From assembly GCF_029338555.1 (NCBI RefSeq), contig NZ_CP119991.1, forward strand, positions 62,001 through 126,000: DNA of 64,000 bases. Reading direction: 5' to 3'. The stretch comes from Halobaculum marinum (GTDB taxonomy: Archaea; Halobacteriota; Halobacteria; Halobacteriales; Haloferacaceae). Of the stretch, positions 8,199-15,574 are shown piece by piece (position 1 is the stretch's first letter; each line of letters opens with the position of its first letter). Below the pieces are notes generated by a model. That model ran no database searches. It was not told the origin of the DNA and saw only the letters and a program-made list of their open reading frames with translations. The translations under genes were made by a program, and so were the position numbers.

Positions 8199-8771
8199 GT
8201 GAGGACGCTGATGCGGTCCACGCCGCCGACCCTGCGGTCGCGAGTCGGTCGAGCCGGCGCGACCGCTTTCGTCGCGTACGCCTTCTACCTCGCACTCGGT
8301 GACCCGACGGATCCGTTCGACCTCGTGACCGGCGCAGCCAGCGCGGTCGTCGTCGGGGTTGTCCTCGGCGTGGTGGCGTTCACACGGACGCCGACCCGCG
8401 GGACGCTCACGACCGTCGCTCGTGCGACCGTCTTCTTCCCGGTCCTCCTCGTTGCGGTCGTGCGGGCCAACGTCTCGTTGGCACGGGTGCTCCTCGACCC
8501 CGACCTCCCCATCGAGCCCGAGGTCGTTCGGGTCCCCGGTCCCGAGGGGCCGTTCGGCCAAGCGCTGTTAGCGAACAGTATCACGCTCACGCCGGGGACG
8601 CTCACCCTCGACATCGTCGACGACGAACTGGTCGTCCACACACTCACCCCTGAGAGTCGCGCGGACCTCGAGTCCGGGACGCTCCAACGGTGGGTCGCCT
8701 ACGTCATCGGCGAGACGTCGATGCCGGCGGTCTCGACGCGACCGTTTGTCCGCGAGGGTGAGCGACAATGA
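8199..8771 (+). CDS. mnhE: Mrp/Mnh cation antiporter subunit E
   Basis: This is the first gene of the Mrp-type Na+/H+ antiporter operon. MnhE is a small membrane subunit needed for assembly of the complex. The 190-aa product has two N-terminal helices, then the family region with ANVSLARVLLDPDLPIEPEVV and SITLTPGTLTLDI, and a soluble C-terminal domain. A GTG at 8199 opens the frame; an ATG four codons later (8211) is an equal candidate. The stop overlaps the mnhF start by four bases. Confidence 0.9.
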   Translation: MRTLMRSTPPTLRSRVGRAGATAFVAYAFYLALGDPTDPFDLVTGAASAVVVGVVLGVVAFTRTPTRGTLTTVARATVFFPVLLVAVVRANVSLARVLLDPDLPIEPEVVRVPGPEGPFGQALLANSITLTPGTLTLDIVDDELVVHTLTPESRADLESGTLQRWVAYVIGETSMPAVSTRPFVREGERQ

Positions 8772-9046
8772 CGCCACTGCTAACTGCGGGGCTGCTCGCT
8801 GGAGCGACGGCGCTACTCGTCCTCGCGCTCGCGCTGTTCGCACGAGTCGCCCGCGGCCCGACGCCGGCCGACCGCGTCATCGCGGTCAACGTCATCGGGA
8901 CGGCGACGGTCGTCGTCATCGCGCTGGTGAGCGCCGGCCTCGGCGAACCGGGCTTCCTCGACGTGGCGCTGGTGTACGCCCTGTTGAACTTCCTGCTGTC
9001 GCTCGGGCTGTCGCGCTTCTCGGTCGAGCGCGGGGGGTTGCTGTGA
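8768..9046 (+). CDS. mnhF: Mrp/Mnh antiporter subunit F
   Basis: This is a 92-aa membrane subunit with three helices and the family core RGPTPADRVIAVNVIGT followed by FLDVALVYALLNFL. MnhF is a structural subunit of the Mrp complex beside subunits E and G. It starts in an ATGA overlap with mnhE and ends in a GTGA overlap with mnhG, so translation of the three is coupled. Length and motif match bacterial MnhF closely. Confidence 0.93.
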   Translation: MTPLLTAGLLAGATALLVLALALFARVARGPTPADRVIAVNVIGTATVVVIALVSAGLGEPGFLDVALVYALLNFLLSLGLSRFSVERGGLL

Positions 9047-9405
9047 CTCCCGTCGAGGTCGTCGTGTTGGCCCTCGTCGCCGGGAGCGTCGCGTTCTCGA
9101 TGCTCGCCGTGGTCGGCTTTGCGCGACTCCCAGACGTGTTCGCGCGGACCCACGCCGCCTCGAAGAGCGAGACGCTCGGCGCGTTGCTCGGCCTCGGGGC
9201 CGCGGCAGTCGCCTTCGGACCGACGCAGGCCGCACTGAAGATCGTCTTGCTCGCCGCGTTCGTCCTCGTCACCGGGCCGACTGCTGCGCACGCGATCGTC
9301 CGCGCCGCGACTCGGTCGGGGGAGACGCCCGTCACCGACGGCGGGAGCGACCACCTCGGTGACACCGCGTCCGCCAGCACCAACGACACGGAGCGTGGCC
9401 GATGA
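9043..9405 (+). CDS. mnhG: Mrp/Mnh antiporter subunit G
   Basis: This is a 120-aa subunit with three helices. The core GFARLPDVFARTHAASKSETLG is the MnhG signature, and a hydrophilic C-terminal tail (from about residue 90) is enriched in Asp, Ser and Thr. It starts with GTG inside the stop of mnhF (GTGA) and overlaps the next gene by four bases. It completes the E-F-G module that is conserved in order across Mrp operons. Confidence 0.93.
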   Translation: MTPVEVVVLALVAGSVAFSMLAVVGFARLPDVFARTHAASKSETLGALLGLGAAAVAFGPTQAALKIVLLAAFVLVTGPTAAHAIVRAATRSGETPVTDGGSDHLGDTASASTNDTERGR

Positions 9406-9986
9406 CCACGACCGAGCTACTGCTGTCGGTCCTGCTCGTGTTCGTCTTGGCGAGCGCGCTCGCGACCGCGCTGGCGCGGAGTCTGCTGGCGACACTGTCA
9501 GCGTTCGCAGCCTACAGCCTCGGGCTCGCGATGGTGTGGGTGTTGTTCCGCGCACCCGACGTCGCGCTCACCGAGGCGGCCGTCGGGGCCGGGGTGACGA
9601 CCGCGCTGTTCCTGCTGGTCGTTCGACGGACGACTGGCGCCGGGACGGCGGCGATCACATCACCCACCGTGGCCGCCACGTCGACGAACGCGGAGCGAAC
9701 CGCTCGCCGAACATCACGGACGCGGTCGGCCGCGGTCGCTGGCCTCGTCACCGTCGGGTTGCTGGCGACGGTCCCGGCGTTACCAGCCGTCGGCGACCCC
9801 ACCGCACCCGCGTTCGGCGCCGTGACTGAGTACTACCTCGCGGACGCCGCGGAGCGGGGCATCGACAACGTCGTCACTGCCGTGCTGGTCGTCTACCGGG
9901 GGTTCGACACCTTCGGCGAGATCGCGGTCGTGTTCGCCGCCGCCGTCGCGGTACTGGCGGTGCTCGACCGGGAGGTACCGCTGTGA
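9402..9986 (+). CDS. MbhD/MbhE-like (DUF4040) Mrp subunit
   Basis: This is a 194-aa membrane protein that carries the part of Mrp normally found at the C-terminus of the large subunit A. Its first half (AFAAYSLGLAMVWVLFRAPDVALTEAAVGAG) is the MbhD/DUF4040 domain. Its end (GIDNVVTAVLVVYRGFDTFGEIAVVF) resembles MbhE. Membrane-bound hydrogenases and Mrp share this arm, which is thought to form part of the ion path. A linker of about 35 polar residues separates the halves. It overlaps both neighbours by four bases. The organisation shows that this archaeal Mrp has a split subunit A. Confidence 0.85.
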   Translation: MTTTELLLSVLLVFVLASALATALARSLLATLSAFAAYSLGLAMVWVLFRAPDVALTEAAVGAGVTTALFLLVVRRTTGAGTAAITSPTVAATSTNAERTARRTSRTRSAAVAGLVTVGLLATVPALPAVGDPTAPAFGAVTEYYLADAAERGIDNVVTAVLVVYRGFDTFGEIAVVFAAAVAVLAVLDREVPL

Positions 9987-10417
9987 CGCGCGTGCCCGAC
10001 ACGCCGGTGGTCACGGCGACCGTCCGGGTGCTGTCACCGTTCGTGCTCACGCTGGCGCTGTTCACCCTGTTCCACGGCACCTCCTCCGTCGGGGGCGGGT
10101 TCCAGGGCGGCGTCATCGCCGCGTCGGTCGTGGTGATGCTCGCGTTCGCGTTCGGCGTGCGTGCCGTCGCAGGCTGGCTCACGACGCGTCGACTGTTCGC
10201 GCTCGCGGCCGCCGGACCGGTGGTCTTCGGCGCCGTCGCGCTCGCGGGGGTGATCGCCGGTGGGTCGTTCCTCCAGTTCGACGTCCTCCCGATCGCGAAG
10301 GCGTCGGTGTACGCGACCGAAGCGATCGAACTCGGTATCGGTGCGACCGTCGCCGGCGTCGTCGTCGTGTTGTTCGTCGCACTCGCCGCTGACGATCCGG
10401 GGAGTGAGCCGCGATGA
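9983..10417 (+). CDS. mnhB: Mrp/Mnh antiporter subunit B
   Basis: This is a 144-aa subunit with four predicted helices. The MnhB core is recognisable in LFTLFHGTSSVGGGFQGGVIAAS and in the later EAIELGIGATVAGVVVVLF. It starts with GTG in a GTGA overlap with the DUF4040 gene and overlaps mnhC by four bases. In bacteria the domain is often fused to MbhE-like sequence; here it stands alone directly after that gene. Confidence 0.92.
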   Translation: MTRVPDTPVVTATVRVLSPFVLTLALFTLFHGTSSVGGGFQGGVIAASVVVMLAFAFGVRAVAGWLTTRRLFALAAAGPVVFGAVALAGVIAGGSFLQFDVLPIAKASVYATEAIELGIGATVAGVVVVLFVALAADDPGSEPR

Positions 10418-10809
10418 CCGCCGCCGTGAGTCTCGTCGAGAGCCTGCTGGTCGCACGCGGGGCGTACGTCGTGTACGCGCTCCTCGTCGGGGTCGGCCTG
10501 TTCGTCCTCGTCGACGACGACAACCTCGTCCGGAAGGTCGTCGGGCTGAACCTGTTCCAGACGGGCGTGTTCCTGTTCTTCGTGACGAGCGCGTTCCGCG
10601 CCGACGGCGTCGCGCCGCTGCTCTCGAGCGGGGGACCCTACGTGAACCCGCTGCCGCACGTGCTCATCCTGACGGCGATCGTCGTCGGGGTGAGTGTGAC
10701 CGCGGTCGCGTTGGCGCTCGTCGTCCGCCTCCACGCGGCCCACGGCACCCTCAGCGAGGCGGCCATCCGTGAGGCCGCCGCCGCCGAGTTGGAGGTGGCC
10801 GAGCGATGA
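10414..10809 (+). CDS. mnhC: Mrp/Mnh antiporter subunit C (NuoK-like)
   Basis: This is a 131-aa subunit related to NuoK of respiratory complex I, with three helices. The conserved block VGLNLFQTGVFLFF lies near residue 45, and a later block reads LPHVLILTAIVVGVSVTAVALALVVRLH. It overlaps mnhB and mnhD by four bases each. The C-terminal helix is extended by about 20 acidic and alanine-rich residues. Confidence 0.93.
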   Translation: MTAAVSLVESLLVARGAYVVYALLVGVGLFVLVDDDNLVRKVVGLNLFQTGVFLFFVTSAFRADGVAPLLSSGGPYVNPLPHVLILTAIVVGVSVTAVALALVVRLHAAHGTLSEAAIREAAAAELEVAER

Positions 10810-12287
10810 ACGACCTCGCGTTCGTGCTCGTCGCCCTACCGCTGTTGGGGGCTGTCGTTCCCTTCGTGCTCGGCCGGCGGGCACCCGAGATGGCACGAGT
10901 CGTGACGGTCGCCGTCCTGATCGCACACGTCGCCGTGGCGGTGGTCGTCGCCGCGCTCGTCGCGACGGGCGGCCCGCTCACCTACGTGGTCGGTGGCCTG
11001 CCGGCTGCAGTCGGAATCGGCCTGCTCGTCGACCAGCTGTCGGCTGTGTTCGTCGTCCTCGTCGCCGGAACGGGCGCCGTGGCGTACGGCTTGCTCCGCG
11101 AGGAGGCGACAGGGCCGGGCGACGGCCTCTGGCTGCTCCTCGTCGCGGGCCTCACCGGTGTCTGTGTCACCGCGGACGTGTTCAACCTCTACGTGTTCCT
11201 CGAGATCTCGGGGTTGGCTGCGTACGCGCTGGTCGCGGGCCGGCGTGGAACGACCCGCGCGCTCGCGGCGCTCCAGTACCTCCTCGTGGGCACCGCCGGG
11301 GCGACGCTGTACCTGCTCGGCGTCGGCTACCTGTACGTCTCCACGGGCACGCTCGCGATGGCCGACCTCCGGGTGGCACTCCCCGAGGTCGGGTACGCTT
11401 CGCCGCTCGTAGTGGCGGCCTTCGGCTTCGTCGTCGTCGGTCTCGGGGTCAAACTGGCCCTGTTCCCTGTCCACACGTGGAAGCCCGACGCCTACGCGGC
11501 GGCACCGGTCGACGTGGCGGTGGTGCTGGCGACGCTCGGCTCCACAGTCGCGGGGTACGCGCTCGTCAGACTCGTGTACGGCGTGTTCACCGTTGAGTTC
11601 CTGACTGCCGTCCCGGCAGCGCGGACCGCACTCCTGGCGACCGGGGCGGTCGGTGTCCTCGTCGGCGGCTACCTCACGCTCCGCCAGGCGCGACTCCGCC
11701 GGATGCTCTCGTACTCGTCGATCCTCCAGTTCGGGATGGTCGTCGTCGGCATCGCGACCGCCACGTCTGCGGCCATCACGGGCGCCGTCCTCCTGCTCGT
11801 GGCAAACGCGGTCGCCAAGGGCGGACTGTTCGCCGCCGCGGGGCTATTCGAGCGGACACTCGGCACGCCCTCGATCGACGCGCTCGCGGGGCGTGGGCGG
11901 GAGTTCCCCGTAGTGTCGCTGGCGGTCGCCGTGGCGTTCGCGTCGCTGGTCGGCCTCCCCCCGAGCGTCGGATTCGCAGGCAAGTGGTACGTCACCGTCG
12001 CCGCGGTCGAGACGGCCGAGTGGACCGTCCTCGCGGTGGTGCTCGCGAGCACGCTCATCTCGCTGGCGTACGCGGGCCGCGTCGTCGAGGTGTTGTACCT
12101 CTCGCCCGACGGCAACTCCGGAGCCGTCGCGGCCGACGGTGGCGCCGCGGCGCCCACTACGCGATTTCGCGGTGACTGGCGGACCACTGCGTTGGTCGCC
12201 GGCGCCGCTGTCGCGACGGTCGTGCTCGGGGTCGCGTCGAGCGGCCTCGCGGCGTGGATCGCCCCGGTCGTGGAGGTGTGGCTGTGA
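10806..12287 (+). CDS. mnhD: Mrp/Mnh antiporter subunit D (proton-conducting)
   Basis: This is a 493-aa polytopic membrane protein of the NuoL/M/N family that conducts protons in the Mrp complex. The family signature is around LYVFLEISGLAAYALVAG (with the key Glu), then LKLALFPVHTWKPDAY-like and RRMLSYSSILQFG, with lysine- and histidine-bearing helices expected of a half-channel. It overlaps mnhC by four bases and the next D-type gene by four (GTGA). It is the first of three related proton-channel subunits in this operon. Confidence 0.92.
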   Translation: MNDLAFVLVALPLLGAVVPFVLGRRAPEMARVVTVAVLIAHVAVAVVVAALVATGGPLTYVVGGLPAAVGIGLLVDQLSAVFVVLVAGTGAVAYGLLREEATGPGDGLWLLLVAGLTGVCVTADVFNLYVFLEISGLAAYALVAGRRGTTRALAALQYLLVGTAGATLYLLGVGYLYVSTGTLAMADLRVALPEVGYASPLVVAAFGFVVVGLGVKLALFPVHTWKPDAYAAAPVDVAVVLATLGSTVAGYALVRLVYGVFTVEFLTAVPAARTALLATGAVGVLVGGYLTLRQARLRRMLSYSSILQFGMVVVGIATATSAAITGAVLLLVANAVAKGGLFAAAGLFERTLGTPSIDALAGRGREFPVVSLAVAVAFASLVGLPPSVGFAGKWYVTVAAVETAEWTVLAVVLASTLISLAYAGRVVEVLYLSPDGNSGAVAADGGAAAPTTRFRGDWRTTALVAGAAVATVVLGVASSGLAAWIAPVVEVWL

Positions 12288-13832
12288 CCGACGTGTCGTC
12301 GCTGTTGCCGCTCGCACCTGTCGCGATCCCTGCCGTCGCGATCCCGGTCATCTACGCGCTCGCCGCGCGACCGAACCTCCGCGAGGGTGTGACGCTCCTC
12401 GCGGCGGTGGCGACGCTCGGCGTCGTCTCGGTCATGGCGAACGCGGACGTGACACACGTCACCCCACTGGGGTCGGTCGCAGGCGTCGACATCACGCTCC
12501 GGGCAGACGCCGCTGGGCTGTTGTTCGCCCTGCTCGCGGCGACGCTGTGGCTGCTCACCAGCATCTACAGTGTCGGCTACACGCGCGGCCTCGGCGAGCA
12601 CAACCAGACCCGGTACTTCGCCGCGTTCGCCGGCAGCATCGCCGCCACGATGGGTGTCGCGTTCGCCGCGAACCTGTTCACCTTGTTCGTGTTCTACGAA
12701 CTGCTGACGCTGGCAACCTACCCGCTGGTCGTCCACGCGGGGACCACCGAGGCCCGCGCGGCCGGGCGAACGTACCTCGCCTACACGCTCGGTGGCGGCG
12801 TGCTCGTCCTCGGCGGCGTCGTCCTCGTCGCGGTGCTCACCGGAACGGTCGCGTTCACCCCGGGCGGCATCGCGGGCATCGCCACGGTCGACCCGACGCT
12901 CGCGCAGGTTGCCTTCGGCCTGCTCGCCGTCGGCTTCGGCGTCAAGACGGCGCTCGTCCCGCTGCACGGCTGGCTACCGACCGCCATGGTCGCGCCGACG
13001 CCCGTCTCGGGGTTACTGCACGCGGTCGCGGTCGTCAAGAGCGGGGTGTTCGCACTCTCGCGGACCGTGTTGTACGTGTTCGGCCCGGAGGCGACGTGGG
13101 AGCTCGGTGTGGGCCTCCCGCTCGCGCTGGCGGCCGCCGCGACGATGGTAATCGCCGGCGTGATCGGCATCCGGCAGGACAACCTCAAGCGCGGGCTGGC
13201 GTACTCGACGATCAGCCAACTGTCGTACATCGCGCTCGGTCTCGCCATCGCGACGCCCGTCGCCGTCTTCGGCGCGCTGTTGCACGTCGTCGCGCACGCG
13301 TTCATGAAGATCACCCTGTTCCTCGCGGCGGGTGTGATATACGTCGAGACGGGCGAGAAGTACGTCTCCGACATGGCCGGCGTCGGTCGCCGGCTCCCAC
13401 TGACGATGACGGCGTTCGCCGTGGCCGCCGCGGGGCTGGTCGGCTTCCCGCTGGTCGCGGGGTTCGTCAGTAAGTTCCACCTCGTGCTCGGTGCTGCGGG
13501 TGGACCGGAGCCGTGGCTCGTCGCGGCCTACCTCCTAGCCGGCCTCCTGAAGCTGCTGTACTTCTGGCCGATCGTCTACGTCGCGTTCTTCGGCGAGCGC
13601 GGGAGCGAGACGCCGGAGAGTCGCCACGCGTTCGCCCCACCGCACGCGACCGACGGCGGCTACGCCGACGGTCTGCGCTGGGAGCGTCCCGGCTTCGGGA
13701 GCGAGGCGTCGCCGTTCGTGCTCGTGCCGGTGCTGTGCACCGTCGCCGCGGCGGTCCTGCTTAGGCGTCGTCCCGACGTCGCTGCCGTTCTGGGCGCTCG
13801 CCGAGGCGGTCGTCGCGGAGGTGTTCGCGTGA
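12284..13832 (+). CDS. D-type proton-conducting Mrp subunit, +1 frameshift near 3' end
   Basis: This is the second NuoL/M/N-type channel subunit of the operon. It contains FYELLTLATYPLVVHAG, a lysine-bearing helix followed by LHGWLPTAMVAPTPVSGLL, and RGLAYSTISQLSYIALG. It starts with GTG at 12284 in a GTGA overlap. After 493 codons the frame meets CTT-AGG-C (13760-13766). If the A at 13763 is skipped, reading continues with GVVPTSLPFWALAEAVVAEVF and stops at TGA 13830-13832, giving 515 aa and the usual GTGA overlap with the next gene. Without the skip the frame runs on in register into that gene and yields one 1,096-aa fusion. Either an indel or recoding explains this. Confidence 0.85.
13760..13766 (+). 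other. CTT-AGG-C heptamer at the frame junction
   Basis: In the zero frame the codons are CTT AGG C. Skipping the A gives CTT GGC and restores a normal C-terminus and stop for the upstream subunit. The same heptamer is the +1 frameshift site of yeast Ty1. In the zero frame the next 22 codons encode an arginine- and glycine-rich linker (RRRPDVAAVLGARRGGRRGG), unlike any subunit end, before joining the downstream GTG in frame. AGG is expected to be rare in this GC-rich genome. Confidence 0.7.
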
Positions 13833-15574
13833 CCGCCGTGAGCGGCCTCGGGGTCGACGCGGCGCTGTTCACCATCGTCCCCCTGTGGACCGCCTACCTG
13901 CTCGCGGCCATCGCCGTGGCGGTCGGGCCGCGCCGGGTCGGCGCGGCGGCCGCCGTCGTCTTGACGGCACTCACCGTGCCGTGGGCGCTCCTGGCGCCGT
14001 CGGGAACCGCGTTCGCGGTCGCGCCGTTCGGCTTCGCCCAGGTGCTCGTCCAGGTCGACGGCCTCACCGCACCGATCGCGGCGCTGTTCGGCTTCGTCGC
14101 CGCCGGCAACGTCCTGTACGGCTACGCGACCGGCGCCGACGGCCGCCAGCAGGCGTACGCGCTGTGCTACATGGGCGCCGGCGTCGCGGCCGTCCTCGCG
14201 GGCGACTGGCTCACGCTCCTCGTCGCGTGGGAACTGCTCGCCGTCGCCTCGACCGTGCTGGTGTGGCACCACGGCGGCGACGCCGTCCGCCCCGCGTTCC
14301 GGTACGCCGTCTACCACCTGATCGGCGGGGCGTTCCTCGTCGCCGGCGTCGTGCTCCACTACGTCGCGGCGGGCACGTTCGTCTATGACGGCGGCTTCAC
14401 GGGAGGCCTCCCCACCGCGCTGGCGCTCGTCGGCGTCGGCGTCAACCTGGGGATCATCGGCCTCCACGCGTGGCTGCCCGAGACCTACCCCGTCCCGCAC
14501 GTGGCGGCGAGCGTCGTCCTCGCGGGATTCACTACGAAAGTCGCCGTGTATGCCCTCGCGCGGGTCGCCCCCGACGGGACCGTCGTCGTGGCGTGGCTCG
14601 GCGCGGTGATGGTGCTGTACGGCGTCACGCAGGCGGTCCTCCAGACCGACATGCGGCGACTGCTGTCGTACCACATCATCTCGCAGGTGGGGTACATGGT
14701 CGTCGCCGTCGCCATCGGGACCTCGGCTGGCTTCGTCGGCGGGTTCGCACACCTGACGGCACACGTCCTCTACAAGGGCCTGCTGTTCATGGTGGCCGGG
14801 GCGATCATCGTCCGCACCGGAGAGGCGTCGCTCAAGCGCCTCGGCGGGCTCTGGCGGCGGATGCCCGTCACCTTCGCCACGTTCATCGTGGCCTCGTTCG
14901 CCATCGCGGGCGTCCCCGGGTTCTCCGGGTTCGTCAGTAAGGGCCTGATCGCGAAGGCCGTCGAGAAGGCCGGTGTCGGCGTCGTCGGCGCGGGTGCCGG
15001 TGGGGTCGACCTCCTGTGGTGGGCGCTCGTCCTCGGCAGCGTCGGCACCGCCCTGTCGTTCGCGAAGTTCGGCTACTACGCGTTCGTCCGGCCCGCTCCA
15101 GCCCACCTCAACGTCGCACCAGCGCCCCCGTCGCTGCGGGTCGTCCTCGTCGCGCTCGCGGTTCCGTCGGTCGTGTTCGGGGTCGCACCCGGGCTCTTGC
15201 TCGGGGCGTTCCCCGGCGACACCGGCGGCTTCGCGCCGTACGCGACCAGCGAGTTGACGAAGGGATTCGGGGCGACCCTCGCCGGCGTCGTCGTGTTCGC
15301 GCTCGTGCGCGGGCCACTCGGTCGGCTCCCGGCACTCGACGTCGACCGCCTGTACAACACCGCCGGCGCGGCCCTCGCGAGTGGCGCTTCCACCGGGTTC
15401 GCCCGTGTTGGCGACGCCGCCTCCGCGGCGGGCCACGCCCTGTCCGCCCGGCTCGGGCCGCTCGTCGCGAGCGACTCCGCCGCCGAACCGTCACCGCACA
15501 CGGCGCTGTGGACGCTCACCGCAGTGACCGGCGCCGTGCTGCTGCTCGCCGCACTCGCGGCACTCACCGTCTGA
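13829..15574 (+). CDS. D-type proton-conducting Mrp subunit (third copy)
   Basis: This is the last and largest channel subunit of the operon, 581 aa from a GTG at 13829 that would overlap the upstream stop as GTGA. Motifs include LLVAWELLAVASTVLVWHHGG, LHAWLPETYPVPHVAASVVLAG and RRLLSYHIISQVGYMV, the standard NuoL/M/N half-channel series. A long C-terminal extension with two further helices resembles NuoL or MrpA more than MrpD. As sequenced it is also in frame with the upstream gene, so it could be made as part of a fusion. Confidence 0.88.
   Translation: MTAVSGLGVDAALFTIVPLWTAYLLAAIAVAVGPRRVGAAAAVVLTALTVPWALLAPSGTAFAVAPFGFAQVLVQVDGLTAPIAALFGFVAAGNVLYGYATGADGRQQAYALCYMGAGVAAVLAGDWLTLLVAWELLAVASTVLVWHHGGDAVRPAFRYAVYHLIGGAFLVAGVVLHYVAAGTFVYDGGFTGGLPTALALVGVGVNLGIIGLHAWLPETYPVPHVAASVVLAGFTTKVAVYALARVAPDGTVVVAWLGAVMVLYGVTQAVLQTDMRRLLSYHIISQVGYMVVAVAIGTSAGFVGGFAHLTAHVLYKGLLFMVAGAIIVRTGEASLKRLGGLWRRMPVTFATFIVASFAIAGVPGFSGFVSKGLIAKAVEKAGVGVVGAGAGGVDLLWWALVLGSVGTALSFAKFGYYAFVRPAPAHLNVAPAPPSLRVVLVALAVPSVVFGVAPGLLLGAFPGDTGGFAPYATSELTKGFGATLAGVVVFALVRGPLGRLPALDVDRLYNTAGAALASGASTGFARVGDAASAAGHALSARLGPLVASDSAAEPSPHTALWTLTAVTGAVLLLAALAALTV

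What the first reader, a model, noticed from the sequence alone, without database searches (positions are those of the whole stretch)
13755..13832. CTT-AGG-C at the junction of two Mrp channel subunits: recoding, fusion or indel
The upstream subunit loses its proper end by one extra base. Skipping the A at 13763 restores a C-terminal sequence like its neighbours and the usual GTGA overlap with the next gene. The heptamer is identical to the yeast Ty1 +1 shift site. Without the shift the frame fuses two channel proteins through an Arg/Gly-rich linker. If real, the cell could make both separate subunits and a fusion from one mRNA. A sequencing or recent indel is the simpler alternative.
Basis: partly seen in the sequence, partly recalled or inferred. 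Interest (0 to 1): 0.8.

Follow-up and report, generated by a model that had tools for sequence, protein, structure and literature searches.

The report
Likely sequencing error in Mrp gene
The extra base that seems to fuse two subunits of a salt-loving archaeon's ion transporter is most likely a one-base assembly error (or, less likely, a one-strain mutation) at a CTAG site, a motif this assembly demonstrably misreads, and not a frame-shifting signal, so it is ordinary.

Summary
CTT-AGG-C lies at 13760-13766 and one surplus base puts the Mrp antiporter D-type gene (from 12284) in the same open frame as the next subunit (13829-15574). The +1 frame after it is the real coding frame: GVVPTSLPFWALAEAVVAEVFA*, GC3 100%, then a GTGA overlap. 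The recoding reading fails: 37 D-gene ends from relatives, up to 79% identical, all have separate genes in different frames, no extra base and no CTTAGG. The heptamer is at chance frequency, and a tRNA-Leu(GAG) that reads CUU exists. The surplus base is best explained as an assembly error. All three contigs of this genome carry untrimmed terminal repeats of 38-49 kb, which gives two readings of 135 kb. They differ by 93 indel events and 17 mismatches. CTAG is the most misread palindromic tetramer, with 16 of 32 CTAG loci discordant; in three coding cases checked, the CTAG copy is right. Removing one T from CTTAGG gives CTAGG, and an in-frame Leu-Gly as in relatives. CTAG is the haloarchaeal m4C site. 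The rest of the contigs is clean, so a real recent indel in this strain stays possible. Reads were not available.

The parts
12284..13832 (+). Mrp/Mnh antiporter D-type subunit gene (second of three D-like genes); its coding frame is broken by one surplus base at 13762/13763; expected stop TGA 13830-13832
   Evidence: PF00361 4.8e-53; NCBIfam monovalent cation/H+ antiporter subunit D models; orthologues end ...LGVVPTALPFWELAETVVAEVFG*
13760..13766 (+). CTTAGGC; probably a misread CTAGGC (Leu-Gly), one T too many
   Evidence: one extra column against seven orthologues; CTAG is the hotspot of discordance in this assembly
13764..13832 (+). true C-terminal coding stretch of the D subunit (GVVPTSLPFWALAEAVVAEVFA*), in the +1 frame
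   Evidence: codon log-odds and GC3; coding HMM switches frame at 13760 and back at 13829
13829..15574 (+). next Mrp D-like subunit gene, GTG start overlapping the upstream TGA (GTGA)
   Evidence: PF00361 3.6e-41; PRK12668 Na(+)/H(+) antiporter subunit D; orthologues start at the same overlap
10806..12287 (+). first D-like subunit of the same operon, intact
   Evidence: PF00361 9e-52
8768..10809 (+). upstream small Mrp subunits F, (G), MbhD/E-like DUF4040, B and C, intact overlapping genes
   Evidence: PF04066, PF13244/PF20501, PF04039, PF00420; subunit G assigned by position only

Best explanation
It is not a biological element. The deposited sequence has one base too many in an ordinary, separately translated MrpD-type gene. 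Most likely the true sequence is ...GTC CTG CTA GGC GTC... and the CTAG site, which in haloarchaea is usually m4C-methylated, was read as CTTAG. The upstream subunit then ends normally as ...LLGVVPTSLPFWALAEAVVAEVFA* at 13832 and the next gene starts at the overlapping GTG. Shown: the surplus base, the conserved separate genes in relatives, and the high CTAG error rate of this assembly in its repeated contig ends. Inferred: that this particular base is an error, and that methylation is the cause.
For: (1) 37 D-gene ends from relatives, including eight genomes of the same orthologous group at 74-79% identity, have the downstream gene in another frame and no extra base. (2) The +1 frame has full codon bias up to its stop and the gene overlap is intact, so there is no sign of decay. 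(3) C1, C2 and C3 have untrimmed terminal repeats of 48,951, 38,040 and 47,673 bp at 99.88-99.91% identity; the two readings differ by 93 indel events and 17 mismatches, mostly G/C homopolymer lengths. (4) CTAG is by far the most affected palindromic tetramer: 17 of 110 differences touch it (0.18 expected) and 16 of 32 CTAG loci are discordant, 12 of 15 on the contig that holds this site; other palindromic tetramers are disrupted at about 3% of sites or less. Forms include CAG, CTG, CTGAG and, at C3:19563, the string CTTAG where the other copy has CTTCTAG. (5) At three coding CTAG discordances the CTAG copy keeps the frame and the other breaks it. (6) CTAG is the m4C motif of a conserved haloarchaeal orphan methylase (PMC6471742; PMC5867850); a 368-aa N6_N4 methylase with TSPPY is in this genome. 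Untrained base modifications cause systematic Nanopore errors (PMC10687267).
Against: The site (C3:75,762) is about 28 kb inside the repeat boundary, where the consensus is far cleaner: of 1,767 CTNAG strings in about 2.1 Mb of non-repeat sequence this is the only convincing frame break. Most CTAG errors seen are deletions or substitutions; a clean insertion inside CTAG is seen once (CTGAG). The sequencing platform and the reads are unknown. The site could also be CTTGG plus A.
Confidence: 0.8

Rival explanations
1. A real, very recent one-base insertion in this strain or plasmid: the D subunit is mutant and fused to the next subunit, without function or with reduced function.
For: The inner parts of the contigs show hardly any other frame breaks, so an error there is rare; the gene is on a 327-kb secondary contig, where loss may be tolerated more easily.
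Against: The +1 frame shows no decay. A random real insertion would seldom happen to fall on a CTAG, while CTAG is the assembly's known weak point. No other Mrp D gene of this type is in the genome: the next best matches are 31-37% identical.
Confidence: 0.15
2. Programmed +1 ribosomal frameshifting at CUU-AGG-C, giving both the separate D subunit and a D-D fusion.
For: The heptamer equals the Ty1/ABP140 shift site (PMC5009743). CTT (1.15 per thousand) and AGG (1.18 per thousand) are rare codons here.
Against: No relative has it. The heptamer is at chance frequency. A dedicated tRNA-Leu(GAG) and a tRNA-Arg(CCT) exist besides tRNA-Leu(TAG). No unusual structure downstream: z = -1.4, 20 of 200 shuffles fold as well.
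Confidence: 0.03
3. A genuine functional gene fusion of two Mrp D-like subunits through an Arg/Gly linker.
For: The frame is open across the junction.
Against: The linker is the off-frame reading of a conserved C-terminus. No fusion was found in the relatives examined; the long 'open frames' of about 1,050-1,150 aa in some genomes are upstream extensions of a frame that stops at the D end, where checked.
Confidence: 0.02

Closest known systems
Modification-mediated systematic indels in long-read assemblies (PMC10687267)
   Same: Errors concentrated on one short motif that is a likely methylation target, beside homopolymer indels.
   Different: The sequencing platform of this genome is not known to me, and methylation of CTAG in this strain was not measured.
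Mrp/Mnh multisubunit cation/H+ antiporter operon of haloarchaea
   Same: Subunit order, Proton_antipo_M domains and overlapping start/stop codons as in Haloferax, Halobellus, Halomicrococcus and Halorubellus loci.
   Different: Only the surplus base at 13762/13763.
[quoted passage not shown]
   Same: Identical heptamer, in frame.
   Different: Not conserved, at chance frequency, in an archaeon with tRNA-Leu(GAG); no evidence of shifting.

Membership tests
Programmed +1 ribosomal frameshift site (Ty1 type) | Slippery heptamer CUU-AGG-C in the zero frame | tested here: met
   13760-13766
Programmed +1 ribosomal frameshift site (Ty1 type) | Shift site and two-frame arrangement conserved in relatives | tested here: not met
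   0 of 37 D-gene ends from relatives
Programmed +1 ribosomal frameshift site (Ty1 type) | CUU read by tRNA-Leu(UAG) that can re-pair on UUA, and a scarce tRNA-Arg for AGG | tested here: inconclusive
   tRNA-Leu(TAG) and tRNA-Leu(GAG) are both present; one tRNA-Arg(CCT) gene; tRNA levels and modifications unknown
Programmed +1 ribosomal frameshift site (Ty1 type) | Trans-frame product made in vivo | not testable with these tools
   needs mass spectrometry or a reporter
Consensus error of a long-read assembly | Single-base indel breaking a conserved gene without decay of the shifted frame | tested here: met
Consensus error of a long-read assembly | Same error type demonstrable elsewhere in the same assembly | tested here: met
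   terminal repeats: 93 indel events against 17 mismatches; CTAG discordant at 16 of 32 loci
Consensus error of a long-read assembly | Reads disagree with the consensus at the site | not testable with these tools
   no reads available
Mrp/Mnh antiporter D-type subunit | Proton_antipo_M domain and Mrp operon context | tested here: met
   PF00361 and neighbours F, B, C, MbhD/E

The most novel reading that the evidence does not exclude
The extra base is real in this strain, and ribosomes shift +1 at CUU-AGG-C often enough to make the normal D subunit besides a D-D fusion: a first cellular +1 recoding event in an archaeon, recently arisen on a secondary replicon.
Probability: 0.02. Interest if true: 0.75.

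Novelty: not a real feature. Interest (0 to 1): 0.08.

Why it matters
As biology it does not matter: the Mrp operon is ordinary. As a warning it is useful. This assembly carries dozens of motif-specific and homopolymer indels in its untrimmed contig ends, so frameshifts, 'fusions' and pseudogenes in it, and perhaps in other long-read haloarchaeal genomes with methylated CTAG, should be checked against CTAG sites before they are interpreted.

Tried and rejected
Recoding: rejected for lack of conservation, chance frequency of the heptamer and no notable structure downstream. Fusion in relatives: long open frames reported for some genomes turned out to be upstream extensions where checked. An assembly full of errors everywhere: rejected; the coding-frame scan finds many breaks in the repeated ends and hardly any inside the contigs. 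A second copy or a sister strain to settle the base: none found in the own genome, congeners, PLSDB or IMG/VR; the collections may leave out the window's own record. Search for the sequencing platform in papers gave nothing usable.

Full report
What is there. The window lies on contig C3 (positions 62001-126000 of 326,684) of a haloarchaeal genome of three contigs, C1 2,929,000, C2 250,847 and C3 326,684. The genus is probably Halobaculum, judged only from one congener's D-gene tail resembling that of L010, Halobaculum litoreum. Window 8768-15574 is a Mrp antiporter operon: F, (G), an MbhD/MbhE-like subunit, B, C and three D-like subunits. The second D-like gene starts at 12284. At 13760-13766 it reads CTT-AGG-C, and the frame runs on into the third D-like gene without a stop. 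One base further, the +1 frame has GC3 1.00 and positive codon log-odds (+8.9), against 0.50 and -15.6 for the unshifted frame, and ends in TGA overlapping the next GTG.

Is it conserved? No. A DNA alignment with seven orthologues shows a single extra column, inside CTTAGG. The closest orthologues are 74-79% identical in protein. No strain of the same species was available. The long open frames (about 1,050-1,150 aa) listed for some genomes extend upstream of the D gene where checked and are not fusions.

Is the heptamer special? It occurs once in the window against 1.5 expected and 19 times in the genome; at the other 18 places it is not an in-frame CTT-AGG pair according to a simple coding model. 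CTT and AGG are rare codons (1.15 and 1.18 per thousand). The yeast mechanism needs a tRNA-Leu(UAG) slipping from CUU to UUA (PMC5009743). Here a tRNA-Leu(GAG) exists besides tRNA-Leu(TAG), and a tRNA-Arg(CCT) exists. The RNA after the site folds no better than one shuffle in ten. Cellular +1 frameshifting is not established in archaea; one -1 case is, and a +1 event is suspected in a haloarchaeal virus (PMC8211752).

Quality of the assembly. A coding-frame scan found broken conserved genes in this genome, clustered near contig ends. The reason is that all three contigs were never trimmed after circular assembly. C1:1-48,951 repeats C1:2,880,066-2,929,000. C2:9-38,048 repeats C2:212,811-250,847. 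C3:1-47,673 repeats C3:279,002-326,684. Identity is 99.88-99.91%. TruD, for instance, is intact at C1:2.88 Mb and broken at C1:3 kb. The two readings differ by 93 indel events and 17 mismatches; 56 of the indels are homopolymer length changes. This gives a direct list of the errors that this assembly makes.

CTAG is the hotspot. Of the 110 differences, 17 touch a CTAG where 0.18 would be expected. 16 of 32 CTAG loci are discordant, 12 of 15 on C3. The next worst palindromic tetramer is disrupted at 3% of its sites. The wrong forms include CAG, CTG, CTGAG and, at C3:19,563, CTTAG where the other copy has CTTCTAG. In three cases inside genes (C3:6914/285923, C3:20576/299588, C2:20813/233615) the CTAG copy keeps the reading frame and the other breaks it, so CTAG is the true sequence there. 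CTAG is the target of a conserved m4C orphan methylase in Halobacteria and is under-represented there (PMC6471742; PMC5867850); the window has 27 against 79 expected. The genome has one strong N6_N4 methylase, 368 aa with a TSPPY motif, as expected for such an enzyme; its target was not shown. Modifications unknown to the basecaller are a documented cause of systematic Nanopore errors (PMC10687267).

Conclusion. Taking one T out of CTTAGG leaves CTAGG, and then the gene reads ...AVLLGVVPTSLPFW..., as its relatives do. An error at a CTAG explains the extra base, its position, the intact +1 frame and the absence in relatives. What remains uncertain is that the site lies inside the clean part of the contig, where it is the only convincing frame break among 1,767 CTNAG strings in about 2.1 Mb. 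A real recent insertion can therefore not be excluded without reads. Either way there is no evidence for recoding or for an evolved fusion.

Noticed in passing
whole genome G000; C1:1-48951 = 2880066-2929000, C2:9-38048 = 212811-250847, C3:1-47673 = 279002-326684: All three contigs carry untrimmed terminal repeats whose two copies differ by many indels, so genes there appear twice and often broken (TruD, a DUF2103-like gene, LivH/LivM-like permeases, an alpha-galactosidase, a P-type ATPase). Gene counts and 'duplications' in these stretches are artefacts.
   Followed up: yes
terminal repeats of G000, e.g. C3:380, 492, 600, 6914, 14259, 20576: CTAG is discordant at 12 of 15 loci in the C3 terminal repeat; probably m4C-related and possibly a wider problem for long-read haloarchaeal genomes.
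   Followed up: partly
C1:2753506 (L251:18506): Possible one-G deletion in a G run inside a contig, splitting a gene; a candidate for an error outside the repeated ends.
   Followed up: no
window 8768-15574 and G000 as a whole: Nine of ten congeners have a Mrp D gene about 64% identical to this one, whereas this genome's only close copy is the one on C3; its other D-like genes are 31-37% identical. The chromosomal Mrp operon may have been replaced by a foreign one on a secondary replicon.
   Followed up: no
C1:2095195-2095935 (L306:1249-2355, - strand): 368-aa N6_N4-type DNA methylase with TSPPY motif, candidate for the CTAG m4C orphan methylase; target not tested.
   Followed up: partly
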